The position numbers were made by a program, and so were the translations under genes. From Botryococcus braunii (lineage: Eukaryota; Chlorophyta; Trebouxiophyceae): DNA of 42,500 nucleotides. Each line of letters starts with the position of its first letter. Positions within the stretch are counted from its first letter, which is position 1. This document shows, in pieces, positions 5,947-31,896 of this stretch. The notes under the pieces were generated by a model. It did no database searches. It was given only the letters and a program-made list of their open reading frames with translations, and was not told the DNA's origin. The stretch lies in the NCBI GenBank assembly GCA_002005505.1, contig KV908403.1, forward strand, positions 378,242 to 420,741. Reading direction: 5' to 3'.

Positions 5947-6304
5947 TGTTGGGTTTTGTGCTTCATTATGTCATGTTAATTTGAGGTAATTATGATTAGA
6001 TAAATAGCTGTGAGTTAACTTCACAGTTAACTCAAGGTGAGGATGCCTTGACACTGGCTAATCAATCAGAAGGATAAACATTATATGGCTGTCGTCTACT
6101 GTTACCTTTTGTGGCTGAAAAACCATGCATTTACCTTTAATAAAAACGTGCATGAGAGTACTGTTAGGATAAGGGTCCAAAACCTCAAGTTCTGGACCAT
6201 TAGGGAGACAGGAATTCAGGAAAAGGGTCAGGAGTACTGCTGAATAGCGCAACCTTCACGCGCTGATCTGAGTATTGATAGGCTTAGAATCCGGAAGGAC
6301 AGGC

Positions 6305-6728
6305 AGTCATTCGCTCTCTAAAGGCTTGTTCAAGCCGTCTCCTGTTTGACTCGTCTGTTCTCTTATTGTCTTGCTTTCTCTTCTACTCACTGTGTGTGAG
6401 CAATTCCCTGAAAGCAACAGTCTAATCTGGTAAGACTCCGGGTCATGACGGCCTCAGTTCGTTCACAGCCATGAGTGCTGAATATTGACTAGTTACTAAC
6501 ATAAGTGTGTTAATTCTACAGATTGTACACCAGTTCGACACCATTGAGTATGTGTGCCTGATTGAACTGGTGCAATATCTGGTAAGCCGGCAGTGTGACG
6601 TCTTGGTATTAGAGTAGTAATGTAGAAATCATGCAAGATACTAAAGGTGTTAGTGCGTTGACAGGATGATATACGTGTACGTATATTGATAATCTATATT
6701 TGATCTTTGACACCTTTGGATCTTGCAG
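6305..6728 (+). other. Intron-containing leader copy in the copia-A LTR
   Basis: Three exon blocks, A 6305-6429 (125 nt), B 6522-6581 (60 nt) and C 6665-6728 (64 nt), are separated by intron 1 (6430-6521, GTAAGA...TCTACAG, TACTAAC branch point at 6494-6500) and intron 2 (6582-6664, GTAAGC...TTGACAG, TACTAA-like branch site). Block C ends in TTGCAG and is followed at 6729 by a third donor, GTGAGA. The introns are inferred because 6771-7019 is exactly A+B+C without them. The start of block A is the likely transcription start. The same structure is in the 3' LTR from 12501 (intron 1 at 12626-12717). Confidence 0.92.
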
Positions 6729-6770
6729 GTGAGATTAGATAGTGTGTGTGTTCGTTCGTTCAACGTTGTA

Positions 6771-7019
6771 AGTCATTCGCTCTCTAAAGGCTTGTTCAAG
6801 CCGTCTCCTGTTTGACTCGTCTGTTCTCTTATTGTCTTGCTTTCTCTTCTACTCACTGTGTGTGAGCAATTCCCTGAAAGCAACAGTCTAATCTGATTGT
6901 ACACCAGTTCGACACCATTGAGTATGTGTGCCTGATTGAACTGGTGCAATATCTGGATGATATACGTGTACGTATATTGATAATCTATATTTGATCTTTG
7001 ACACCTTTGGATCTTGCAG
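6771..7019 (+). other. Spliced leader copy in the copia-A LTR (A+B+C)
   Basis: These 249 nt equal blocks A, B and C joined at exactly the predicted splice junctions, with no mismatch that I can see. TGTAA (6767-6771) overlaps the start. The copy ends TTGCAG followed by ATCACA, the LTR terminus. The T-rich stretch before that TTGCAG also looks like a 3' splice site, so the donor at 6729 could splice to 7020 and skip this whole copy. The counterpart in the 3' LTR starts at 12966. Confidence 0.92.
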
Positions 7020-7027
7020 ATCACAAT

Positions 7028-7040
7028 GGTTATGGGCCCA
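7028..7040 (+). promoter_or_regulatory. Primer-binding site matching the initiator tRNA-Met anticodon arm
   Basis: GGTTATGGGCCCA begins two bases after the LTR. Its complement, TGGGCCCATAACC, is the anticodon stem-loop sequence (CAT anticodon) of eukaryotic initiator tRNA-Met, not the 3' CCA end. Drosophila copia is known to be primed from a half-tRNA-iMet cut in the anticodon loop; the same is inferred here. Confidence 0.8.
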
Positions 7041-7745
7041 CCCATGGAGTCTCGACGCCTAGAAGTGCAGCGTGCGAATCTCATTCACTTTGGCGTGGAG
7101 CAACATAGAAAAGGGCGCTTCCGTTGCGACTCGTGCGATAACTACTTCTTTGGAAAGGTCCCCTTAGATCAAGTAGCATCGGCAATTGATAGTGGTTGCT
7201 ATCGTTTCGAACGCTTCTGTGACATTGGTACATAAATTGAAAGAAAAACAGAAGGAACAACCCATTTCTGAGTTTGTCTATCCTTACCGACCACCTGGCT
7301 CTGAATCCGAAGAACTTCGGCCTGTTAAACGAAGTCGGTGTGAAGTTATCTATCCGTATCGACCTTTTATTGAAGAGCAACACTCATTAAGTGATTGGGA
7401 AAGAGACTGTGTGAATCACAAACATTAGTTTAGATCGCTGTGGGTAGAAGCTGGATTATTGGTGGACTCCTGTGACAAAAATCCTTCAGACACTTCCTTC
7501 TACTGGTTAGTAATTGAAGTATTCACCCTACTTTCATTGGCAAAATCCTTAACTTGGTACTCTATCCTGAATTGCACGGTCAAGACCTTATTAGAATCAG
7601 ATTGGAAGGTGAAAGACGTAGAATTATTGACCAATTTGCTGAGGATGTTGAAACAAACAATCACTTAGTCCTTGCAAGTGTTTATTCTTTGGCGTACCAA
7701 GGCACCTGAAGTTTGAGTTTGATCACAGCACTTACAGTGTTCATA
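7041..7745 (+). other. copia-A leader with small open frames
   Basis: About 700 nt between primer site and gag. A frame from the ATG at 7026 runs 69 codons to 7235 and contains CDSC. A second frame, overlapping its end and running to 7428, contains two copies of a YPYRP motif separated by about 30 residues with a basic PVKRSR stretch between them. Neither resembles a family I know. The gag ATG is not coupled to either, since TAA TGA lies directly at it. Confidence 0.4.
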
Positions 7746-10700
7746 ATGAGTAATTCAGCTGGAGCATCTGCTCCTGGTGGTAATCCAACGGTTGCCTCAG
7801 GTAGCACACCTGACCCACATAATCCTGTTTATAACAACCAGAAATTGGTACAATCTCTGGATGTTGATTGTATAAATGGGTTCAGGTGGGCTAAGGATGT
7901 TGAAAATGTTGCTAATAGTAAGAGAATCAGGATATGCCTTGAGGAGGAACACCCGGATACGCCAGGGGACTCACTGGCTATGAGTCTAGTGACAGAAAAG
8001 ATTCCCGACGAGTGGATAGATAAAGCGCTCGACATGCCTTCAGCCAAGCAAGCCTATGAGTGGCTGAAAGGTAAGTTCACAGGAGGTAAAAATCAAAAGC
8101 TCATGTCTAAATGGGCTTTTCTCCTTGATTCAGGTAAAATCGAGGATGCCCAGACCTACATGGCATTTGTAGCCATGAAGTTCAAGCTGGCTAGAGGTCT
8201 TAGGGCAAATAATCACCCTGTGGATGATGAGCGCCTCATAATGGGAATTGTCAGTGGGCTGCCCAAGGCTTTTTCTCATGATTTAGGCCATCTGTATGAT
8301 TCATGCTTGGGAAAAGATGAGGATGAGGTTGTGTCTCGTATCAGTGCCAGTGCAAAATTCTTAGGAATCGATCAGCACAAGGCTCCCTCTGCGTCAGCAA
8401 ACCTTGTTCCTCCTCCCAGACCAAGGAATGCCCCTACTTATGAGGGTGTGAGGCCTAAGGGCATGCCTCATGATCTACCAACAGAGTTTCGTGGCTGTTG
8501 GTTCTGCCTTGGAGATGGTCATAGAAGGCAGGACTGTCAGAAGTACAAAGATGATTGTGCCAGGAGAGCTGCAATCATGGCTGGCAAGGGGCGATCTCAA
8601 AATCCTGTTGGAGGAATGGCCATGATTGACTCCTCAGATTCAGGTAAATTGTCCTCACTATGGGTAGTAGATTCTGGAGCTTCCACACATATCTGCAATG
8701 ATGTGAGATTAATGAATAATGTACATTGGTATCCAGTTCCAAAGGGTCTAAATCTGGCCACTGGTGAACATGTGGCGCAACGCAAAGCATCTGGAATCGT
8801 ATGCTTGGTTGATCAGCAGGGCAACACATGTATGTTGAGGGATGTTGAATTTGTTCCGACTGCGTTGGAAAATTTAATGTCAGTATCTGCTGGAGTCGTC
8901 GACGGTCTTAGTTTTTCAACTAATTCAGTAGGTGAAGTCACAAGTGTCTGCTGTCTGAAATCATCCTTCACAATGGAAGTTACAAAGGAGAGAGGGTTGT
9001 ATTTTTGTTCAACATCATGTCAGTCAATGAAGCCCCCTCACACTGCTGGTCTTGCGCACAAGTGCTCCGAGTATGATCTCTGGCATGCAAGGTTAGGACA
9101 TCCTGGAAGTAAAAACATGGAACGACTGCAGACAGAAAATATGGTTAAAGGGATTGAAACCTCTTTATCTCCTTGCTCACATGGTCACTCACTATGCGAG
9201 GTGTGTGTTTTGGGTAAGCAGACTAGAGAAAGCTACCAACGTTCCCCTGCAACAGCTACAGAGCGCCTACAGCTTGTCCATATGGATATTGTTGGTGAAC
9301 TTCCTGTACCGGGGGCAGAAGGGGAGAGGTATATGCTCACTGTGCTGGATGATTTTTCTAAGGCTGGTGAAGCAAGGGCTCTATGCTACAAGTCTCAGGT
9401 GGGCGATGCTGTTAAAGCAATCCTTAAATATTTAGAAAATCAAACTGGTCACTATGTAAAGGTGGTTAGGACTGACAGGGGGACTGAATTTGTTAACTCA
9501 GATTTACACGAGTTTTTTCAGTCAAAGGGCATCAGACATGAAACGTCTGCACCCTACACACCTCAACAAAATGGTAGGGCAGAGCGTTTTAACAGATCCT
9601 TAACGGAGAAGGTTAGAATGTTGCTGCTACAAGCTAAGGCCCCACAAAGTATGTGGACCGACGCACTGCCTACTGCTGTCAGGCTACTTAATCTTAGAGC
9701 TACTAAGGGGAAGTCTGCCACCCCTTATGAGCTACTGTTCGGCAGGAAACCTTCTGTGCATTATTTGAGGGTCTTTGGCTGTCTGGCGTACATCAAAATC
9801 CCAGACAAAGACTTGTCTGCCTTCTCCCCTAGGTCAGAGGCTGGTATGTTCGTGGGTTATGAACCAGCATCTAAGGCATACAGGATAAGGGTTGGCAGTA
9901 AGGTCAAGGTATCGAAAAATGTTAAGTTTTTCGAAGATAAATTGGGAATTCACACTCTCTCTACTGAAACCCAATTGCCCTCTGACTTCCCACGTGAAGT
10001 AAATTGTGATCAGGTGCCAAGCGCTGCAGATGAGGATGACTGGGACTTTGTTCCGGTTGACATTGCCGACGCCTTGGAGATGAACAGGGAAGCTGGAAGG
10101 GGACTAGATCAAATCCTTCCAGCTAACCTAGAAGTTATGCAGAGACTGAACGAAGTTCTGAGGGAACAGGCTCAGGCGGAAGAGAGTGGGATCAGAGAGA
10201 CACATGGCTCAGCCATCTCAGGGGAAGAGTTAATGGGCCTTGGGACTGGACAGGAACATCCAGAGGAGGGTGTGAATAATCCATGCTCAGAGTCGGATAA
10301 CGATAACTCATCACATGAGTCTGACAATGATGATGATGTGCAGGAAAGGGTGAGGGGTGGAACAAGTCGGTATGATCTAAGAGAGACACTTGCTCAACCA
10401 GATAAGTATGTTCCAGGCGCTTATCATGTAAAGGACAATCCATTACTAGGCGCAACAGAGGTTACACCACCCATGCAGAATGGAGCAAGAGAGAAAGTCA
10501 ACATTGCATCTAGAGATGTGAGGATTCCTAACGATTGGTTTGAAGCCAGGAATTCACCCCAATGGGTATACTGGCTGGAGGCCATGAACGAGGAAATGGA
10601 CTCCATCGAAGCGCATGAAACCTTTGAGTATTGTGACAAGCCATCACATGCAAAGGTGATCCCACTGAAGTGGGTTTATGCTATTAAAACTGATGGTTTT

Positions 10701-12099
10701 GGGGATGTAGTCAGGTTCAAGGCTAGACTTGTTGCTCAAGGATGCAAGCAACGGCCAGGAGTGGACTATTTTGAGACGTTTGCTCCAGTTAGCACTCACG
10801 CCTCCAGGCGTGTGCTTCTAAATTTGGCAAACGCAAATGGATGGAAGGTGCATCAGGTAGATATTAAAACTGCCTTTCTGAATGGATCACTAGAAGAGGA
10901 AGTTTATGTTTCTCAGCCTCCTTGCTTTTTCAATGGTGATTCCAGTAAGGTATGTAAACTCCTGAAGTCACTGTATGGCTTGAAACAGGCCCCACGTGCC
11001 TGGCACAAGCGTTTAGTTGAAGAGCTGAACAAGTTTGGATTTAAGGCTTGCAAAAGCGATTCGTCCTTGTTCATTAACAAGGAGTCCTATGAGTCACCTG
11101 TTTATCTGCTGACTTACGTGGATGATCTGTTAATTATTTGTAAGGAAGGTGAAACTATTGAGTGTGTGAAACAACAGCTCACTAGCATCTTTTCAATCCA
11201 TGATTTGGGTGAGATAAAAGCATTTTTGGGATGTGAAATTAGAAAGGATGAATCTACTGGAAATCTCAAAATGACCAATGTGTTGAAAATTGAGAGACTG
11301 GTGGAGGAGTATGGACTGCCGGCACAGGGGAAGGAAGTCAATACTCCAATGGCATATGGGTTTGTCTCTACGCAGAATCCTGAGCCACCACTAGGAAGGG
11401 CTGGTGAGCAGGTAGGAGCTGGCATGCCACTGCCAGAAGGTCACAGTACCTTGAGCTCATTGGATCGCTACAATACCTTGCTACCACAACAAGGCCTGAT
11501 ATAGCTCAGGCAGTGGGGGTACTGAGTCGGTTCAGGGGGCAGCCTACGACTGCACACTGGAATGGGGCAATAAGGGTACTGAGGTACTTAAATTGCACTA
11601 AAGAAATGGGCATCACATATACTAACTCGGGAGACAATGAGTTGGTGGGATATGTTGATGCAGATTTTGCTGGGGACCTCGATGGACGAAAATCAACCAC
11701 AGGGTTTATTTTTCTACTGAATGGGTCAGCTGTGTCTTGGTGCAGCAAGAAGCAGTCATCAGTTGCCACATCCACAGTGGAAGCTGAATTTGTTGCTGCC
11801 AGTGCAGCAGTGAAGGAGGTAATGTGGATGGGAGGTATGCTTGAAGAGCTTGGAGTAACAGTGAAGACTGTCAAGCTTTTCTGTGATAATCAAGGAGCAA
11901 TTCAGCACTTGAAAAATCACATAGTGTCCAAATTCACTAAGCATATAAGCATCAGTTATCACTATGCACGTGAAAAAGTGGCTTGGGGCAGATTGAACCT
12001 GTCTATATTGCTACGTCTGAAAACGTGGCAGATATGTTTACGAAGCCCTTAGCATCTGCCTTATTTGAGAAGCATAGGGCTAAGCTTGGAGTGTCTTAA
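7746..12099 (+). pseudogene. copia-A gag-pol, broken by two one-base losses
   Basis: Start chosen at ATG 7746. Gag core spans roughly residues 20-220. A CCHC knuckle CWFCLGDGHRRQDC begins at residue 251. Protease DSGA has its Asp at 309. The pre-integrase HHCC region starts near 446. The integrase triad is D514, D577, E613 (DX35E). RT carries YVDD (Asp 1126-1127) and the QVDIKTAFLNG and LYGLKQAPRAW blocks. A missing base near 11443 ends the frame at 11504 just before RNase H; the RNase H reading resumes in another frame with its D, E and D residues (YVDADF, VEAEF, CDNQG). A second missing base near 11985 (after GTGGCTTGGGG) displaces the final ~35 codons, which then run to TAA 12097-12099. 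Everything else looks intact. Confidence 0.93.
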
Positions 12100-12130
12100 A
12101 CAATGGGGTAAAATTAACTGACATATGAAC

Positions 12131-12142
12131 CAAGGGGAAGAT
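12131..12142 (+). promoter_or_regulatory. Polypurine tract of copia-A
   Basis: AAGGGGAAGAT directly precedes the 3' LTR and would prime plus-strand DNA. Copia-B has the same AAGGGGAAG core. Confidence 0.75.
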
Positions 12143-13220
12143 TGTTGGGTTTTGTGCTTCATTATGTCATGTTAATTTGAGGTAATTATGATTAGATAAA
12201 TAGCTGTGAGTTAACTTCACAGTTAACTCAAGGTGAGGATGCCTTGACACTGGCTAATCAATCAGAAGGATAAACATTATATGGCTGTCGTCTACTGTTA
12301 CCTTTTGTGGCTGAAAAACCATGCATTTACCTTTAATAAAAACGTGCATGAGAGTACTGTTAGGATAAGGGTCCAAAACCTCAAGTTCTGGACCATTAGG
12401 GAGACAGGAATTCAGGAAAAGGGTCAGGAGTACTGCTGAATAGCGCAACCTTCACGCGCTGATCTGAGTATTGATAGGCTTAGAACCCGGAAGGACAGGC
12501 AGTCATTCGCTCTCTAAAGGCTTGTTCAAGCCGTCTCCTGTTTGACTCGTCTGTTCTCTTATTGTCTTGCTTTCTCTTCTACTCACTGTGTGTGAGCAAT
12601 TCCCTGAAAGCAACAGTCTAATCTGGTAAGACTCCGGGTCATGACGGCCTCAGTTCGTTCACAGCCATGAGTGCTGAATATTGACTAGTTACTAACATAA
12701 GTGTGTTAATTCTACAGATTGTACACCAGTTCGACACCATTGAGTATGTGTGCCTGATTGAACTGGTGCAATATCTGGTAAGCCGGCAGTGTGACGTCTT
12801 GGTATTAGAGTAGTAATGTAGAATCATGCAAGATACTAAAGGTGTTAGTGCGTTGACAGGATGATATACGTGTACGTATATTGATAATCTATATTTGATC
12901 TTTGACACCTTTGGATCTTGCAGGTGAGATTAGATAGTGTGTGTGTTCGTTCGTTCAACGTTGTAAGTCATTCGCTCTCTAAAGGCTTGTTCAAGCCGTC
13001 TCCTGTTTGACTCGTCTGTTCTCTTATTGTCTTGCTTTCTCTTCTACTCACTGTGTGTGAGCAATTCCCTGAAAGCAACAGTCTAATCTGATTGTACACC
13101 AGTTCGACACCATTGAGTATGTGTGCCTGATTGAACTGGTGCAATATCTGGATGATATACGTGTACGTATATTGATAATCTATATTTGATCTTTGACACC
13201 TTTGGATCTTGCAGATCACA
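12143..13220 (+). repeat. 3' LTR of copia-A (1078 bp)
   Basis: Matches the 5' LTR except for one base change and one single-base deletion by eye, and contains the same unspliced/spliced leader pair. It is followed by the target duplication GTTAC. Confidence 0.96.
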
Positions 13221-24756: not shown

Positions 24757-25447
24757 TGAAATATTCTGGGCTTGGCGTATCCTGCATGGTGGCGGCACGG
24801 AGGGTGTTAGACGATGTCCTCCTACTTGTGCGTTGTTAAGTAGGCACGGACATATACAAGTCAAGGACTGGTTAGCAACTGATTGATAGACACCCGGAGT
24901 GCCACTATAGTTCCAACCAAGTGTTACAATATCTCTCATCTCTCCTAACAAGGTGACGCAGTTCAAACACGCCTAACCTGCTCTCACCCAGGTCGTGTTC
25001 ATTACTTTGTCCGATGAGCTAAACTCAACTCTATATGTCTAACATGTTCTAACAATGTTCATCTGAGTGCTAAATCCAGGAATACAATAAGGATTAAGTC
25101 ACCTGCATGGTGGCGGCACGGAGGGTGTTAGACGATGTCCTCCTACTTGTGCGTTGTTAAGTAGGCACGGACATATACAAGTCAAGGACTGGTTAGCAAC
25201 TGATTGATAGACACCCGGAGTGCCACTATAGTTCCAACCAAGTGCCTTCCCTATCCGTGCTTGCCCCATATGCCTCCTTTCTACAAACGTGTCTGTAACT
25301 TGCGTTATGATAGTCTTCGTTCAAATGCATGTATTGCCTGGCAGAACTCAGGGTTCTGCCTCTCTTTCCTAATTGGTATTGTCTTCATACGGAGACTTGC
25401 CATTATTACTCCTCTGAGGGAAAGGCATAAAATTAATTAACACAACA
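24757..25447 (-). repeat. 3' LTR of copia-B (691 bp)
   Basis: On the minus strand begins TGTTGTGTTAATTAA and ends ATATTTCA. It contains the 142-bp leader twice, at 25103-25244 (copy 1) and 24782-24923 (copy 2). Confidence 0.96.
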
Positions 25448-25459
25448 CTTCCCCTTGCC
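25448..25459 (-). promoter_or_regulatory. Polypurine tract of copia-B
   Basis: On the minus strand GGCAAGGGGAAG sits against the LTR, sharing AAGGGGAAG with copia-A. Confidence 0.75.
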
Positions 25460-25465
25460 TTTACC

Positions 25466-28400
25466 TCACAGAAACTTGGCCAGTCCCAGTGAGTTACGAT
25501 GTCCCAGAAACACTTGTCTAACTAGTGGTTTGGTAAAAATGTCAGCCACATTTCTAGCAGATTGAATGTACTTGAATTCAACCTGCCCCTTTGCAATAGC
25601 TTCACGTGCGAAATGACAGCTAATTGCAATATGCTTTGTGTGTTTGGAGTACACCGGATTCCTCAGGTGGTTTATACACCCTTGGTTGTCACAATGAATC
25701 TTCACTATCCACGGTAACACTCCAATTTCCTCCAGGAAACCTCTCAGCCAATTTGCTTCCTTCACAACAGCACTTGCTGCCATGAATTCAGCCTCCACTG
25801 TTGAAGTGGCAACAGCAGATTGCTTTTTACTTCCCCACACTACTGCTCCTCCAAACACAGTGAGGACAAAGCCAGTGGTAGAGAAGCGATGATCCTGATC
25901 ACCTCCATAGTCGGCATCCACATAGCCTTCTAGCTCTATCTCCCCCCCTCCGAGAGTTAGAACCAAATCTCGGGTTCCTTTCAGATACTTCAACACACGG
26001 ATGGCTTCATTCCAATGTGCTGTGGTGGGAGATATGCGATAACGAGACAATACACCTACTGCCTGAGCTATATCGGGACGTGTGGTGTTGGCTATATACA
26101 GAAGAGACCCTACTAACTCACAGTAACGGTGACCTGGAGGTAGTGGACTGCCAGCACCAATGCTGTCGCTCCCATCTCTCGGTGCAGGCCTTTGGGACAT
26201 TACGAAATCTTTTGTCATGGGAGTATCAGGTCCCACTGACTCAAGATCCAAGCCAAATTTCTCTACAAGTGCATCGATTTTAGGGATGCAACTCAGGGTG
26301 ATCAGCCCTTTATCTCTATCTCTCATCACTTGACATCCCAAGAAATCCTTCACTTCCCCAAGATCATGGATGGTGAATTCTTTCTTGAGAAGTCCCTTCA
26401 CTCTCTCGATTTCTGACATGCCCTTGGAAACTATCAGAAGATCATCAACATAGATCAGCACATAGGACTTTCCTCCATCAGTAGAGCATCTCACATACAC
26501 TCCCGCATCACTCTTGCACACCTCATACCCCATGACTTCAAGTTTGTCATTCAGGGTTTTGTGCCAGGCACGTGGAGCCTGCTTCAGGCCATACAACGCC
26601 TTTCTCAATCGGCACACAATATTCTTATCACCATTCTCAAAGCCAGGAGGTTGCGTTACATATACTTCCTCCTCGAGCTCACCATTCAGAAAGGCGGTCT
26701 TAACGTCCACCTGATGAATTTCACAGCCCTCTCTTGCAGCAACAGCAAGCAGAGCTCTTCTAGCTCCATAGCTACTAGTAGGAGCAAAGACCTCCATCAC
26801 ATCCACTCCAGGGATTTGTCTGCATCCCTGTGCCACTAATCTGGCCTTGAATCTCACAACATTGCCATGTGCATCCATTTTCACTGAAAATATCCAGTGA
26901 ACTGGAATAACCTTATGTCCACGAGGTCTCGGAACATACTCCATGACCTCATGAGTATCTAGAGAATTTTGCTCTTCCTGCATAGCTGCCTTCCAGTATT
27001 CCCACTGGGGAGACATCTGTGCTTCTCTCAAATTAGAGGGAACGTGAATTTTCCCAAATCTGACACCTGTGTGCTTTTCCTCTGAATTGCCTGATTTTCT
27101 CTCACTTTGTCCAGAACCCACTACTCTTCCACTGACACTCGCTGAGTTACACATCACAGGCTCTCCAGTAGAAGTAGAATGCTCTCTCATAGCACGCTCT
27201 CGCTTGGACTCACACTTGGCTTTGCACAAGTTACTCTGCTCATCCCTCACATCATCCTCCCATGCACAGGTACCTCTCGGACAGTCTTTGTAATTTGGAA
27301 TCCCTTCACATTGTCCAGACTTCCGATTCACCTCCTCAGACACACTCTGACATGCCTGCAAGAGTTCAGACTCTTCAGGTCTCTCACAAGCAACATCGGG
27401 ATATGGCAGAGTGTCTGCATACTTCCCCTGATTTATGTGATCCACATGCCTCTCAGACCGACTGCATGTCACTGTTGGGAGTGACCTCACATCTCTGACA
27501 TCACTCTCCCAGGCACAGGTACCTCTCAGTGAGCACTTGTAATTTGGTCTGTCTCCACAATGTCTGTGCTCCTGATTCACCTCCTCCTCTCGTCCCTTAC
27601 ATGGAGTCAAGGATGCAGATCCTGTCTCCCGCTCACAATCATGTTTGGCTGGTGCAGAGAAAGCATATGATGCTTCCTCTGACCGGTGGCTGCCACCACA
27701 GTCCCGTCCAGGAGTGCTCTGACTGGACGGGTTGCCAGAAGAACTCTGCATGGTCACATCTCTTACATTTCTCTCAGTCACTGAACAAGACCCACCCATA
27801 CTGCTCAGCTCCCCGGGACCATTTGCAGCTTTGCATGTAGCTGCCCCCCTCACTGCACTCACATGCAATTCATGCCCCTCATGTGAATCACCCTCTAGCT
27901 GCACTTCCCCTGGTCCCTGTGACAGAGAGTCACATTCAGTCAACCCCTCTCGCTCTCTGCTCTCTCCCTTCTCCTGTGGCAGCAGGAGGTCTTTGGCGGC
28001 AGTGCGTTGTTCGTGTCGTTGAGCCCGGGTCAGGCCATCCAATTGGTGGTTGCGGCAATCAGACCTAGTTGGTCTGAGGACCTCCTGGGCTCGCTCCATC
28101 TGCGGTCGAAGGTGGGAGTCCTGTCTCACTCCTCTGGCTAAGTCCTGTACTGCCTCCAGGGTTTGATCCATCTCCACTGGGTCACACAGTCTTCTGGATT
28201 CAGGCTCGGGCTCAGCCTCACTGGGGGGTCCTGTGACAGGCTGTGTGGGGAGGTTGCTGGAGGCTGGCAGGTACTCAGGCTCACTGTGTGGGTCATCAAG
28301 ATCTGTCTCAAGGCTGATGTTGGTTGTGCCAGGGGAGGTGCCGGGAAAGACTGGGGGAGTGTCACTTGCAGAGGGCTCAGGACACAGAAACTCTGTAGAC

Positions 28401-30868
28401 TGTGTTGAGGAAACGCTCATGCCAACCCGAGAGGCTCCCCTGAGGTGCTCCACGAAAACCACATCTCTGCTCTCCTTCCAGATACCCCCTCCCACATAGA
28501 TCCGATAGGCTTTGGAGGAGGCTGAGTAACCAGTAAGCATCCCTGGCACAGTTTTAGGGGAAAACACAGAGCGCTGGACATCAGGAATGTGCACAAAGGC
28601 CAAGCAACCCCAGGTACGCAGTGGGGTTACATTTGGTTTGTAGCCAAAAAATAATTCTGATGGCGTGCGGTCCCTCCCGGTACTGGGACCCATGTTCAGT
28701 AGGGTGCATGCAGTTTCCAGGGCCTCCTTCCACAACGTTGGACTGGCAGCTGCAAAAGCCAGAAGAGTCCTGGTACGTTCCTTGAGGGTGCGATTGGCTC
28801 TTTCAGCCGCTCCATTCTGTTGCGGGGTGTAAGGAGCTGAGGTCTCCAATTTAGTCCCCTGGGATGCACAAAATTCTTTGAACGTGGCATTCAGAAATTC
28901 AGTTCCACGGTCACACCGGACACACTTCACTTTGGTTTTCTTCTGGGTCTGCCAGTATAGAATGAGGTCCCTCACAGCAGCACTGATGGCATCTTTGGAC
29001 TTCACAGGCAGGACCGCCTTTAACTGAGATGACTCATCCAAAGCAGTCACCCAGTAACGTTCACCAGTTACTGCAGCAGGAAAAATGGGGCCCACAGTGT
29101 CAATATGTACTCTGTCAAGTGGTTCAACAGCTGGTCTACTGCTTATTCCAAATGGAGGCCGAGACGTCTTTCCCTCAATACATGCTTCACAGTAGACTGG
29201 ACAATTGGAGCAGGGACATAGGGATGTATCAAGTCCCGAGACCAGGTCCTCATTGGTTAGGCGCTGCATCCATGTTTCACCTGGATGTCCCATTCTGCTA
29301 TGCCAGAGGTATCGTCTGGCACAGTTGTGTGAGTTTTGGGTGGGGGTTTTGGACTTCACAGCAGCTGAAATTCTTCTGTGGTTAACACTGGGACTCAGAG
29401 CTACAACTTGATGAATATAAAATAGCCCTTTCTCTGCACTGATCCGAGACCTCCAGCTGTTTGGACCACAGACTTCAGTGAACGCTCCAACATCATCTGT
29501 GCGAAAGACTGCCCCATCCCGCAATGCTGCAGATACTGACAGTATGTTTGAGGTTGCAGAAGGAACACACTGAACATGATGTATCCACAGGGGAACTCCC
29601 ACTCGACTGAGGATGCAGACAGAGCCTGATGCTACAATTCCTCCAGTGGCATCTGAAGTGGCCAGATGTAATGGGATGGGTTTGGCATGCACAGTTGGAT
29701 TATGTAGTAGGGTCACATCATTCACCAGATGTACAGATGCTCCACTGTCCACCAGCCAGGATTGCAGAGACGAATTTCTGACAGGAGTCTTCAGGATGTT
29801 GAGGGAAATTATGTATGGCATACCTCCAGGTGGTGGAGGTGGGGGAGCTGGGGGTTGGAACCATGCCGGAAAGGCATCCAGTCCAGGGTGCGCCAGCTGG
29901 GCTGCAGGAGGGTGTGGGCCACCCATATGTGGAGGTCCCTGTGGCCACATTCCCTGCAATTGTTGGACCGCTGCCACTACGTTCCGTTGGGTCTCCTCGT
30001 CCCGCTTCCTCTTTCGACAGTCCCTCCAGTAATGCCCCTTCTTATTGCAGTAGTTGCAGATGCCCTTAGTCTCGGACTTGGCCTCAGAGACAGTTGGTTG
30101 GGCCTGCTGATGGACTGCACTGGCAGCTGGTGGGGTATTGGCTCCACTGGAGCCTTGTCCAAGAGCCAAAACCCTTGGTTGGCGAGGAGCATATTCATCA
30201 AAACCCACTGCAGCTGCTGTGTTGCGCAGAAGTCCAGCCAGCTTCTCCAGGGGTTGTGCTGCAGCAGTTGTGATCATTCCTGGCTCTTTAGCTGCATCAG
30301 GCAAGCCCTGCACAATCTGGGTTGCAACGTGTGCATCCAGTAGAGCATGGTTGTTCCTGTCAAGGCATGCCTTCAGGTTGATCATTCTGTTGACATATTG
30401 CGAAATCGTCTCGTCATGTTTCATTCCCTGGCTCATTTCTTGGAGCCAATCTGCATTGGCCTCGATATTATATCCACCAATAAACTTTCTGCAGATGAAC
30501 TCATATGCATCATAAGCAGAGGGCAGATTAGACAGAGGTCCCAGCCATTCCTCTGGGACTGACTCATAAATCAGTAACATTGCGGCTGCGTCATGTGCTG
30601 TACCAGGCATAGCCTCCAGGATGGCAGGCAAAGACCCTTTTGACTCATTTGCTGCCAAAAATGCATTCTTCCAAACAATAATATTTGTCCCCCGTTCCTT
30701 CAGTTTTATGTGTACCTTGACATTTGTTGGGATAATCTTGGGCAGCTCATCTCCGCTGCCTCTTGAGGTGCTGGGAGTACACGGTTCTCTGATGGGTGTG
30801 GATGAGGCTGGTTCACTGCTTGACGTTGATGCTCCACTAGCTGATGATCCTTTCTTCTTGGAAGTCAT
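25466..30868 (-). CDS. Gag-pol polyprotein of copia-B, 1800 aa, intact
   Basis: Starts at ATG 30868 (MTSKKKGSSASG). Gag spans about residues 45-230. A CCHC knuckle CNYCNKKGHYWRDC begins at residue 271. Protease DSGA has Asp 374. The integrase triad D590, D653, E689 is DX35E. RT has YVDD at Asp 1475-1476, followed by RNase H (YVDADY, VEAEF, CDNQG) and the usual NVADIFTKPL end. The integrase-RT linker is unusually long (about residues 800-1260), hydrophilic and Cys-containing, with an internal duplication described below. Total length is well above the usual 1300-1450 residues of copia polyproteins because of this linker. Gag and Pol are in one frame, so their ratio must be set otherwise. Confidence 0.96.
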   Translation of the reverse strand: MTSKKKGSSASGASTSSSEPASSTPIREPCTPSTSRGSGDELPKIIPTNVKVHIKLKERGTNIIVWKNAFLAANESKGSLPAILEAMPGTAHDAAAMLLIYESVPEEWLGPLSNLPSAYDAYEFICRKFIGGYNIEANADWLQEMSQGMKHDETISQYVNRMINLKACLDRNNHALLDAHVATQIVQGLPDAAKEPGMITTAAAQPLEKLAGLLRNTAAAVGFDEYAPRQPRVLALGQGSSGANTPPAASAVHQQAQPTVSEAKSETKGICNYCNKKGHYWRDCRKRKRDEETQRNVVAAVQQLQGMWPQGPPHMGGPHPPAAQLAHPGLDAFPAWFQPPAPPPPPPGGMPYIISLNILKTPVRNSSLQSWLVDSGASVHLVNDVTLLHNPTVHAKPIPLHLATSDATGGIVASGSVCILSRVGVPLWIHHVQCVPSATSNILSVSAALRDGAVFRTDDVGAFTEVCGPNSWRSRISAEKGLFYIHQVVALSPSVNHRRISAAVKSKTPTQNSHNCARRYLWHSRMGHPGETWMQRLTNEDLVSGLDTSLCPCSNCPVYCEACIEGKTSRPPFGISSRPAVEPLDRVHIDTVGPIFPAAVTGERYWVTALDESSQLKAVLPVKSKDAISAAVRDLILYWQTQKKTKVKCVRCDRGTEFLNATFKEFCASQGTKLETSAPYTPQQNGAAERANRTLKERTRTLLAFAAASPTLWKEALETACTLLNMGPSTGRDRTPSELFFGYKPNVTPLRTWGCLAFVHIPDVQRSVFSPKTVPGMLTGYSASSKAYRIYVGGGIWKESRDVVFVEHLRGASRVGMSVSSTQSTEFLCPEPSASDTPPVFPGTSPGTTNISLETDLDDPHSEPEYLPASSNLPTQPVTGPPSEAEPEPESRRLCDPVEMDQTLEAVQDLARGVRQDSHLRPQMERAQEVLRPTRSDCRNHQLDGLTRAQRHEQRTAAKDLLLPQEKGESREREGLTECDSLSQGPGEVQLEGDSHEGHELHVSAVRGAATCKAANGPGELSSMGGSCSVTERNVRDVTMQSSSGNPSSQSTPGRDCGGSHRSEEASYAFSAPAKHDCERETGSASLTPCKGREEEVNQEHRHCGDRPNYKCSLRGTCAWESDVRDVRSLPTVTCSRSERHVDHINQGKYADTLPYPDVACERPEESELLQACQSVSEEVNRKSGQCEGIPNYKDCPRGTCAWEDDVRDEQSNLCKAKCESKRERAMREHSTSTGEPVMCNSASVSGRVVGSGQSERKSGNSEEKHTGVRFGKIHVPSNLREAQMSPQWEYWKAAMQEEQNSLDTHEVMEYVPRPRGHKVIPVHWIFSVKMDAHGNVVRFKARLVAQGCRQIPGVDVMEVFAPTSSYGARRALLAVAAREGCEIHQVDVKTAFLNGELEEEVYVTQPPGFENGDKNIVCRLRKALYGLKQAPRAWHKTLNDKLEVMGYEVCKSDAGVYVRCSTDGGKSYVLIYVDDLLIVSKGMSEIERVKGLLKKEFTIHDLGEVKDFLGCQVMRDRDKGLITLSCIPKIDALVEKFGLDLESVGPDTPMTKDFVMSQRPAPRDGSDSIGAGSPLPPGHRYCELVGSLLYIANTTRPDIAQAVGVLSRYRISPTTAHWNEAIRVLKYLKGTRDLVLTLGGGEIELEGYVDADYGGDQDHRFSTTGFVLTVFGGAVVWGSKKQSAVATSTVEAEFMAASAVVKEANWLRGFLEEIGVLPWIVKIHCDNQGCINHLRNPVYSKHTKHIAISCHFAREAIAKGQVEFKYIQSARNVADIFTKPLVRQVFLGHRNSLGLAKFL

Positions 30869-31137
30869 AATTCCCCAGTTGTCTTATAACTCCAGTACTC
30901 GCAAGGTAGCAGCAAGATCTTACTTCTGAACCAGGTGGGTTGAGCTAACGGACAGCCAACGTGAAGGTGAAAGATGTAGTCTTTGACGATAAAGGCTCTC
31001 TCGTCAGGATTGCGGTCTCCACGTTGTCCTCCTTCTCTGATTAGTTCGTTGTATGACGGAGGTCCTGATCTCAAGCGCGCTGGAACGTTGAGGTTGGTGG
31101 TCTTCCTGGCTGTTTGCTTTGTCCGCTTCTTCGCCAT
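30865..31137 (-). CDS. Leader ORF of copia-B with a histone H3 tail-like N-terminus
   Basis: A 90-codon frame from a true ATG (31137) begins MAKKRTKQTARKTT. RTKQTARK equals residues 2-9 of histone H3, covering K4 and K9, and the next two residues are TT where H3 has ST. After that the similarity stops (NLNVPARLRSG...), so it is not a captured histone gene. Its TGA stop overlaps the gag ATG as ATGA, an arrangement that allows termination-reinitiation. Kozak context is weak at -3 and good at +4. It lies 55 nt from the primer site, in the only leader available. Function is unknown; a histone-tail mimic or an upstream regulatory ORF is the inference. Confidence 0.65.
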   Translation of the reverse strand: MAKKRTKQTARKTTNLNVPARLRSGPPSYNELIREGGQRGDRNPDERAFIVKDYIFHLHVGCPLAQPTWFRSKILLLPCEYWSYKTTGEL

Positions 31138-31192
31138 TCACAGTCTAGTGAGCTCCGATTTAGGCGCCACCCACTCTCAGCATCCGAGCCCG

Positions 31193-31205
31193 TGGGCCCA
31201 TAACC
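31193..31205 (-). promoter_or_regulatory. Primer-binding site of copia-B, identical to that of copia-A
   Basis: GGTTATGGGCCCA on the minus strand directly abuts the LTR end and is complementary to the initiator tRNA-Met anticodon arm. Confidence 0.8.
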
Positions 31206-31896
31206 TGAAATATTCTGGGCTTGGCGTATCCTGCATGGTGGCGGCACGGAGGGTGTTAGACGATGTCCTCCTACTTGTGCGTTGTTAAGTAGGCACGGAC
31301 ATATACAAGTCAAGGACTGGTTAGCAACTGATTGATAGACACCCGGAGTGCCACTATAGTTCCAACCAAGTGTTACAATATCTCTCATCTCTCCTAACAA
31401 GGTGACGCAGTTCAAACACGCCTAACCTGCTCTCACCCAGGTCGTGTTCATTACTTTGTCCGATGAGCTAAACTCAACTCTATATGTCTAACATGTTCTA
31501 ACAATGTTCATCTGAGTGCTAAATCCAGGAATACAATAAGGATTAAGTCACCTGCATGGTGGCGGCACGGAGGGTGTTAGACGATGTCCTCCTACTTGTG
31601 CGTTGTTAAGTAGGCACGGACATATACAAGTCAAGGACTGGTTAGCAACTGATTGATAGACACCCGGAGTGCCACTATAGTTCCAACCAAGTGCCTTCCC
31701 TATCCGTGCTTGCCCCATATGCCTCCTTTCTACAAACGTGTCTGTAACTTGCGTTATGATAGTCTTCGTTCAAATGCATGTATTGCCTGGCAGAACTCAG
31801 GGTTCTGCCTCTCTTTCCTAATTGGTATTGTCTTCATACGGAGACTTGCCATTATTACTCCTCTGAGGGAAAGGCATAAAATTAATTAACACAACA
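31206..31896 (-). repeat. 5' LTR of copia-B (691 bp)
   Basis: Carries the 142-bp leader at 31552-31693 (copy 1) and 31231-31372 (copy 2), separated by 179 nt. In element direction U3 is 31896-31694 and only 25 nt follow copy 2. Confidence 0.96.
31231..31693 (-). other. Duplicated leader of the copia-B LTR with donor after copy 1
   Basis: Both copies (31552-31693 and 31231-31372) read from CACTTGGTTGG to CCACCATGCAG. Copy 1 is followed by the donor-like GTGACT; copy 2 by GATACG and the LTR end. TGTAA (31373-31377) immediately precedes copy 2. A CTAAC branch-like motif lies about 25 nt before the terminal CAG, so the end of copy 2 can serve as a 3' splice site. Splicing copy 1 to that site would give leader-GATACG, the same sequence as copy 2. 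Confidence 0.85.

What the first reader, a model, noticed from the sequence alone, without database searches (positions are those of the whole stretch)
6305..7025. An LTR that carries its leader both unspliced and exactly spliced, in tandem
Seen: blocks A, B and C (6305-6429, 6522-6581, 6665-6728) are separated by two intervening sequences with canonical donors, acceptors and branch sites; 6771-7019 is A+B+C joined exactly, and both LTRs have it. Known: reverse transcription copies the RNA 5' end to the cap as strong-stop DNA, then moves to the RNA 3' end. Inference: the RNA 5' leader is spliced (A-B-C joined to ATCACA through donor 6729 and acceptor 7019/7020), while the RNA 3' end keeps the introns and ends just after TGTAA near 6771. 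Transfer of spliced strong-stop DNA to that 3' end would rebuild precisely this LTR every cycle, so introns persist in a retroelement that should lose them. I know of no described LTR with this architecture.
Basis: partly seen in the sequence, partly recalled or inferred. Interest (0 to 1): 0.95.

Follow-up and report, generated by a model that had tools for sequence, protein, structure and literature searches.

The report
LTR rebuilt from spliced leader RNA
A jumping gene in what is likely a green alga carries the start of its RNA twice in each end repeat, once with introns and once exactly spliced; the two copies change together from lineage to lineage, so the second is likely rewritten from spliced RNA each time the element copies itself, which would let introns survive in a retroelement that is expected to lose them.

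Summary
Across 13 tandem LTRs of four lineages, copy 1 and copy 2 evolve in concert: 1889 lineage-specific sites against 11 copy-specific ones in 48 comparisons; copy 1 as one clade is rejected (p-AU 1e-49). In 12 of 12 paired elements the exon copies were identical at insertion. Splice sites are mostly kept while introns diverge. Intronless LTRs arose on four U3 backgrounds. The plan recurs in three further copia families of this genome, one in this window: exon, CAG|GT donor, linker, TGTAA, near-exact exon copy ending CAG, short U5, PBS. TGTAA is the chlorophyte poly(A) signal (PMC1868727); its place predicts an RNA 3' end about 14 nt into copy 2, a short R. Best reading: spliced strong-stop DNA rewrites copy 2 every cycle. 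No transcript was seen; cap, poly(A) site and third splice are inferred.

The parts
5947..7025 (+). 5' LTR (1079 nt, TGTTGG...ATCACA)
   Evidence: TSD GTTAC on both sides of the element
5947..6304 (+). U3 part; ends at predicted cap site
   Evidence: haplotypes; similarity between the two exon copies begins right after it (J1/J2)
6305..6429 (+). leader exon A, copy 1 (predicted RNA 5' end at or near 6305)
   Evidence: cap site inferred
6430..6521 (+). intron 1 (GTAAGA...TACTAAC...CTACAG)
   Evidence: exact absence in copy 2; sites mostly conserved
6522..6581 (+). leader exon B, copy 1
6582..6664 (+). intron 2 (GTAAGC...TTGACAG)
6665..6728 (+). leader exon C, copy 1; ends CAG before donor GTGAGA
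6729..7019 (+). predicted third intron: donor CAG|GTGAGA to acceptor TTGCAG|ATCACA, removes linker, TGTAA and copy 2
   Evidence: donor GT kept in 11 of 13 LTRs; needed to explain homogenised copies; not observed as RNA
6729..6770 (+). linker
6767..6771 (+). TGTAA, predicted chlorophyte poly(A) signal, straddles linker|A2
   Evidence: only TGTAA in the 5' LTR; UGUAA rule from PMC1868727
6771..7019 (+). A+B+C exactly joined, copy 2 (spliced)
   Evidence: 249 of 249 identical to exons of copy 1
7020..7025 (+). short U5 end ATCACA
7027..7042 (+). primer binding site TGGTTATGGGCCCACC; GGTTATGGGCCCA looks like the complement of the initiator-tRNA anticodon arm, as for Drosophila copia (recalled, not tested)
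7713..11504 (+). copia gag-pol open frame (integrase before RT); a second frame 11408-12052 overlaps its end, so this copy is probably broken; not mended
12143..13220 (+). 3' LTR; A1 12501-12625, i1 12626-12717, B1 12718-12777, i2 12778-12859, C1 12860-12923, linker 12924-12965, A2B2C2 12966-13214
31206..31896 (-). family 2, 5' LTR (691 nt): exon copy X1 31693-31551, donor CAG|GTGACT, linker 31550-31373 ending TGTAA, exact copy X2 31372-31230, U5, PBS GGTTATGGGCCCA
24757..25447 (-). family 2, 3' LTR: X1 25244-25102, X2 24923-24781; TSD GGATC
25466..30883 (-). family 2 copia gag-pol open frame, 1805 codons

Best explanation
This is a Ty1/copia retrotransposon, probably of a trebouxiophyte green alga, whose LTR holds its leader once with introns and once exactly spliced, and the second copy is likely rewritten in every replication cycle from spliced leader RNA. 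Shown: the anatomy, its identity in both LTRs, concerted change of the two copies, mostly conserved splice sites, and the same plan in four families. Inferred: transcription starts at the first base of copy 1; introns 1 and 2 and a third intron (6729-7019, donor after C1, acceptor at the end of C2) are removed, leaving A-B-C-ATCACA-PBS; the third intron also takes out the TGTAA poly(A) signal of the 5' LTR. In the 3' LTR the TGTAA ends the RNA about 14 nt inside copy 2, before the third acceptor, so the 3' end keeps copy 1 with its introns plus a short start of copy 2. Minus-strand strong-stop DNA (about 255 nt, not 721) ends in the complement of A, pairs with that short R at the RNA 3' end, and is extended through linker and copy 1 into U3. 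The LTR is thereby rebuilt: copy 1 and introns come from the parent's 3' LTR, copy 2 from the spliced copy 1 of its 5' LTR. The two R sequences are therefore different copies of one repeat.
For: Exact A+B+C junctions. 13 tandem LTRs in 4 lineages: 1889 concerted against 11 copy-specific sites over 48 between-lineage pairs (pairs share rows and are not independent); copy 1 held as one clade is rejected, lnL 350 worse, p-AU 1.06e-49 (the window's two identical copies were left free in that test). Old LTRs drift apart again (copy distance 0.044-0.102 in 12 of 13), so homogenisation does not go on in the chromosome. 12 of 12 paired elements had identical exon copies at insertion; the one pre-insertion exon change seen (B42 T>C) is in both copies of both LTRs. 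Splice sites mostly kept while introns diverge 0.13-0.35. Family 3: 24-30 concerted, 0 copy-specific sites between L095 and each of 4 others; family 2: 4 and 0 between L080 and each of 3 others. TGTAA starts 4-8 nt upstream of copy 2 in 4 of 4 families and is the only TGTAA of the stretch examined in 3 of 4. Intronless LTRs on four U3 backgrounds are what transfer to copy 1 instead of copy 2 would give.
Against: No RNA data: cap, poly(A) site, third splice and intron retention at the RNA 3' end are unseen. The same short introns must be spliced at the 5' end but kept at the 3' end of one RNA, and nothing found here explains how. TGTAA is exact in 9 of 13 family-1 LTRs only. An AATAAA lies in U3 166 nt before A1 (variants of it in other lineages), which would fit a different, conventional R. 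A search for poly(A)-tailed copies ending near copy 2 found 0. Of 13 LTRs, donor 1 reads GC in 2, donor 2 is mutated in 1 and unaligned in 1, donor 3 reads CT in 2, acceptor 1 lacks AG in 1. Within the L050 group the signal is weaker: 78 concerted against 7 copy-specific sites in 28 pairs, and the tree leaves most of that group unresolved. The list was filtered for AGG at both repeat ends, so that list by itself does not show donors to be a rule. The host's use of UGUAA is inferred from kinship.
Confidence: 0.8

Rival explanations
1. One ancient accident: strong-stop DNA from a spliced RNA was once joined to an unspliced 3' end, and the tandem has since been copied by ordinary reverse transcription of unspliced RNA.
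For: Simplest origin for one locus; the junction is at the same place in the family-1 lineages.
Against: Copies would then diverge independently; they do not. The plan also occurs with dissimilar exons in other families, with copies 97-100% alike, or 94.8% in the old L094.
Confidence: 0.03
2. Unspliced RNA is the template (start upstream in U3 near the AATAAA, or at copy 2), and the copies are kept alike by recombination or gene conversion between them; splicing only serves mRNA.
For: AATAAA at -166. Recombination between copies probably happens: solo LTRs of types U (C616) and P (C364) are what C1xC2 and B1xB2 exchange would leave.
Against: Such exchange deletes linker or introns rather than keeping both; old LTRs show no continued conversion; it does not explain mostly conserved third donors, TGTAA at the same place in four families, or the mature-exon form of copy 2.
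Confidence: 0.1
3. Two-RNA variant: a spliced and an unspliced RNA share a particle, and cDNA from the spliced leader jumps to copy 2 in the unspliced 5' leader of the partner, then transfers conventionally.
For: Gives the same rebuilt LTR and the same concerted evolution (inference); packaging and reverse transcription of spliced HIV RNA is reported (PMC1868081, search listing and start of abstract only).
Against: Needs two jumps and does not use the TGTAA-defined end; no direct evidence either way.
Confidence: 0.07

Closest known systems
Ty1/copia LTR retrotransposons (copia; Osser of Volvox, recalled)
   Same: Domain order integrase then RT (RVT_2), TG...CA LTRs, 5-bp TSDs, PBS next to the LTR; GGTTATGGGCCCA PBS resembles the half-tRNAiMet site of copia (recalled).
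   Different: The LTR carries introns and a second, spliced leader copy; the listings of the paper searches showed no such LTR.
BARE of barley (PMC3735527, passages read)
   Same: A copia element with several RNA classes and splicing.
   Different: BARE splices at the end of gag for a subgenomic mRNA and replicates unspliced RNA; [quoted passage not shown] Here spliced RNA is the inferred replication template.
Foamy virus (PMC3185757 passages) and HTLV-type retroviruses (recalled) with a splice donor in R
   Same: A splice donor just downstream of the cap inside the LTR.
   Different: There the splice removes the PBS and makes mRNA (recalled); here the predicted acceptor lies upstream of the PBS, so the spliced RNA keeps it.
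Retroviruses that silence the 5' poly(A) site (review PMC12789967 passages)
   Same: The problem is the same: a poly(A) signal present at both ends of the transcript.
   Different: Here the signal would sit in an intron of the 5' leader and be removed by splicing.

Membership tests
Ty1/copia LTR retrotransposon | pol order with integrase before RT | tested here: met
   Pfam gag_pre-integrs, rve, then RVT_2 in one frame; protease and RNase H gave no Pfam row and were not tested separately
Ty1/copia LTR retrotransposon | Two near-identical LTRs TG...CA, short TSD | tested here: met
   LTRs 99.8% alike, TSD GTTAC
Ty1/copia LTR retrotransposon | tRNA primer binding site next to the 5' LTR | tested here: inconclusive
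   TGGTTATGGGCCCACC at 7027 and the core GGTTATGGGCCCA in families 2-4; no tRNA gene in the window, host tRNAs not searched
Conventional LTR (U3-R-U5 with one R set by cap and poly(A) site) | The R at the RNA 5' end and at the 3' end is the same LTR segment | not testable with these tools
   Needs RNA ends; concerted evolution argues that copy 2 is templated by copy 1
Conventional LTR (U3-R-U5 with one R set by cap and poly(A) site) | LTR holds no spliceosomal introns | tested here: not met
   Intron-bearing copy beside its exactly spliced copy in both LTRs of the window and in the tandem LTRs mapped (a few old copies carry inserts or are cut)
Chlorophyte UGUAA poly(A) signal | UGUAA about 17 nt before cleavage | tested here: inconclusive
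   Motif and place found in 4 of 4 families, exact in 9 of 13 family-1 LTRs; cleavage unseen; host grouped with Trebouxiophyceae by H2B

The most novel reading that the evidence does not exclude
A new way for LTR elements to replicate: the genomic RNA is spliced before reverse transcription, the 5' R and the 3' R are two different copies of one tandem repeat, the poly(A) signal sits in the leader intron, and the intron-bearing copy is protected because it is copied only from the RNA 3' end. Four copia families of this alga do so, so it is a general strategy of an algal copia lineage and not an oddity of one element.
Probability: 0.75. Interest if true: 0.93.

Novelty: new variant of a known kind. 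Interest (0 to 1): 0.88.

Why it matters
Intron loss during retrotransposition is the textbook mark of an RNA intermediate, and retroelements are thought to have to keep spliced RNA out of reverse transcription (stated for BARE, PMC3735527). This LTR suggests the opposite: splicing built into the replication cycle, with a repeat that hands the introns on unharmed. It also suggests a neat answer to an old problem, how an LTR uses a poly(A) signal at its 3' end and ignores it at its 5' end: the 5' one is inside an intron. Because the plan leaves a permanent DNA record (copy 1 against copy 2), splicing of a retroelement's genomic RNA can be read from genome sequence alone, and LTRs of other green algae can be screened for it.

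Tried and rejected
One ancient duplication: rejected by the tree and site counts. Start at copy 2 with copy 1 as a promoter relic: rejected, it explains neither the splice donor nor the homogenised copies. Types U and P as evidence for partial strong-stop transfer (my idea): dropped, because C616 is a solo LTR and C364 two copies of one solo LTR with matching 5-bp flanks, so LTR-LTR recombination explains them as well. L045 (type U with PBS) and L064 share a 5' flank and conflict with each other; both put aside as doubtful assembly. A1:120del in L027 and L028, first read as a shared copy-1 variant, is one locus on two contigs. L042's 22-nt insert at B|C looked like alternative splicing but is a snap-back inverted repeat; L068 shows a similar one.

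Led nowhere: poly(A)-tailed copies (0 hits); viral contigs for RT and for the family-2 LTR end (no relative); genome contigs for the family-1 LTR end (19 matches in bacterial and archaeal records, taken as chance, not examined); COX1 as a species marker (3 short matches); tRNAs in the window (0).

Rows left out: from the tree, L057 (upstream half not alignable), L078 (inserts in both introns), L080-L083 (interrupted or partial LTRs) and all further near-identical family-1 copies, which the window's 5' LTR stands for. L012, cut in U3, was left out of the U3 haplotypes. L049, L056 and L060 hold only part of an LTR and were not classed. Other direct repeats in the scans (simple or coding repeats in L075, L079, L087-L090 and the window) do not show the plan.

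Full report
Observation. The window lies in a 176-Mb genome of 989 contigs at C69:378242-420741. The element at 5947-13220 has two LTRs (5947-7025 and 12143-13220) that differ by one substitution and one indel, TG...CA ends and a 5-bp target duplication GTTAC. Blocks A1, B1 and C1 are separated by introns of 92 and 83 nt with GT-AG ends; 6771-7019 is A1+B1+C1 joined, 249 of 249 letters. Both LTRs carry it. Its reading frame holds copia domains in copia order.

How common. Forty hits were scored in the first genome search, 35 of them over the whole query (counts of the search are lower bounds). The linker|A2 junction has 47 matches at up to 3 mismatches (control 1), 44 of them in recognisable LTR copies. 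The LTR end TCTTGCAG|ATCACA has 56 exact matches. Four lineages of the tandem LTR occur: the window's, L046, a group around L050-L079, and L066/L067; a search with L067 showed no further lineage among its 40 scored matches.

Concerted evolution. For 13 tandem LTRs I compared copy-1 exons with copy 2. Over 48 between-lineage pairs, 1889 sites have both copies of each LTR agreeing while the lineages differ (27-50 per pair); 11 sites separate copy 1 from copy 2 (at most 2 per pair). A tree with the copy-1 sequences on one side is 350 log units worse (p-AU 1.06e-49; the window's two identical copies were left free; a smaller tree had been seen before). The pairs share rows, so the counts are not independent. 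In the L050 group (8 LTRs, 28 pairs) the count is 78 to 7 and the tree is mostly unresolved; there the copies of one LTR differ by 0.066 on average, about as much as different insertions do (0.071-0.083): they drift apart after insertion, so nothing keeps them alike in the chromosome, and the equality is set when an element replicates.

Fresh insertions. For 12 tandem elements both LTRs could be paired, and 12 of 12 have matching 5-bp flanks; one pair (C289 and C472) lies on two contigs and was joined by flank, U3 haplotype and exon variant, and the two LTRs of C600 differ in U3. No exon difference between copy 1 and copy 2 is shared by both LTRs of an element, so the copies were identical at insertion in 12 of 12; the one pre-insertion exon change seen (B42 T>C) is in both copies of both LTRs. 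Elements differ meanwhile in U3, introns and linker.

Splice sites. Between lineages the introns differ at 13-35% of sites. In the 13 LTRs, donor 1 is GT in 11 and GC in 2, acceptor 1 ends in AG in 12, acceptor 2 in AG in 13; donor 2 is GT in 11 (one mutated, one not aligned), the third donor (C1|linker) is GT in 11 and CT in 2, and C2 ends in CAG in 13. The third splice is an inference, but homogenised copies need it: without it the strong-stop DNA would copy copy 2 from copy 2.

Intron loss. LTRs with A-B-C directly after U3 and no linker occur as complete pairs with matching flanks at C35, C145 and C192, and once at C230; a diverged one stands at the start of C289 (L071, cut by the contig end). 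The first four insertions sit on four different U3 haplotypes; C35 shares a one-base insertion with the tandem elements at C19 and C45, C230 shares two variants with tandem LTRs at C15, C472 and C289. Intron loss is therefore recurrent, and no intronless haplotype was seen twice; with four insertions that is only a hint that the loss is a dead end. Transfer of spliced strong-stop DNA to A1 instead of A2 would produce it; template switching between the repeats could too.

Three more families. The second copia element of this window (minus strand, LTRs 31896-31206 and 25447-24757, TSD GGATC) has an exact 143-nt repeat in each LTR. A scan of the loci fetched by then (output cut, filtered for AGG at both repeat ends) found the same plan in families 3 (136 nt) and 4 (141 nt): exon copy 1, CAG|GT donor, linker of 178-341 nt in families 2-4, TGTAA, exon copy 2 ending CAG, short U5; the PBS GGTTATGGGCCCA follows in the 5' LTRs read up to it. 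Family 3 is also visible without the filter, family 4 only with it. Families 2 and 3 may be distantly alike (61 of 123 aligned exon sites differ). In family 3, L095 against each of four others gives 24-30 concerted and 0 copy-specific sites; in family 2, L080 against each of three others gives 4 and 0; family 4 was read from one element only. Searches with families 2, 3 and 4 returned 41, 43 and 40 matches, at the scoring limit. In these families the exon has no intron of its own; family 1 adds two.

Poly(A) signal. TGTAA starts 4, 5, 8 and 6 nt before copy 2 in families 1-4, and is the only TGTAA in the LTR stretch examined in families 1, 2 and 4 (family 3 has a second one 144 nt upstream; for families 3 and 4 the stretch is not the whole LTR); a given 9-nt stretch holds it by chance with probability 0.005-0.009 (the place was chosen after seeing it). 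UGUAA is the poly(A) signal of derived chlorophytes and peaks 17 nt before cleavage (PMC1868727: abstract, background and passages read). The host's H2B matches Symbiochloris and Apatococcus at 97% over 76%, Myrmecia and Coccomyxa at 88-92% (best 120 of 7990 listed, headed by long animal proteins at lower identity), so it is probably a trebouxiophyte. This predicts an RNA 3' end near 6784, with an R of about 14 nt; MMTV works with 15 (PMC12789967 passages).

Mechanism. Spliced leader RNA is copied from the PBS to the cap; the product pairs with the short R at the RNA 3' end and is extended through linker, intron-bearing copy 1 and U3. This rebuilds the LTR in both sequence and introns. In the 5' LTR the TGTAA lies inside the third intron, which would remove the premature poly(A) signal; that the downstream splice donor silences the 5' poly(A) site is known for HIV-1 (titles in the reference list of PMC12789967). 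Unexplained: why introns 1 and 2 stay in the RNA 3' end. All steps of this paragraph are inference.

Known work. Paper searches for LTRs with introns, spliced genomic RNA, leader splicing or concerted LTR repeats listed no such LTR (titles and abstract starts seen, an open-licence library only). BARE splices at the end of gag and is said to replicate unspliced RNA only (PMC3735527 passages). Foamy viruses have a splice donor in R (PMC3185757 passages).

Noticed in passing
window 24757-31896 (minus strand): A second copia family in the same window shows the same LTR plan without internal introns; followed into two further families.
   Followed up: yes
window 7026-7045 and the matching place in other family-1 copies: The window, C104 and C347 have PBS GGTTATGGGCCCA; the other 16 of 19 family-1 5' LTRs shown read GGTTATTGGGCCCCA, although PBS sequence is normally renewed from the primer tRNA each cycle.
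   Followed up: no
L042 1269-1290 (minus orientation) and L068 about 2150-2208: Snap-back (inverted) insertions at the B|C joint in two LTRs; exon C starts with a palindrome.
   Followed up: partly
C112 (L080, L081) and C930 (L083): A family-1 LTR at C112 interrupted inside C1 by about 20 kb, with 5 bp of C1 on both sides (positions 19-23), a nested insertion; C930 breaks off at the same place.
   Followed up: partly
L045 (C472) and L064 (C230): Same 5' flank but different LTR forms (introns kept against scrambled); allelic difference or assembly error.
   Followed up: no
window 7014-7235: A short open frame runs across the PBS and encodes a cysteine-containing peptide (CDSCDNYF...), upstream of gag.
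   Followed up: no
L082 1259-1751, U5 of family 3: U5 holds GCCCATAACC, the inverse complement of the PBS core just downstream, so U5 and PBS could form a hairpin.
   Followed up: no
L088 862-1995: COX1-like fragments interrupted by simple repeats in the nuclear assembly, probably mitochondrial insertions.
   Followed up: no
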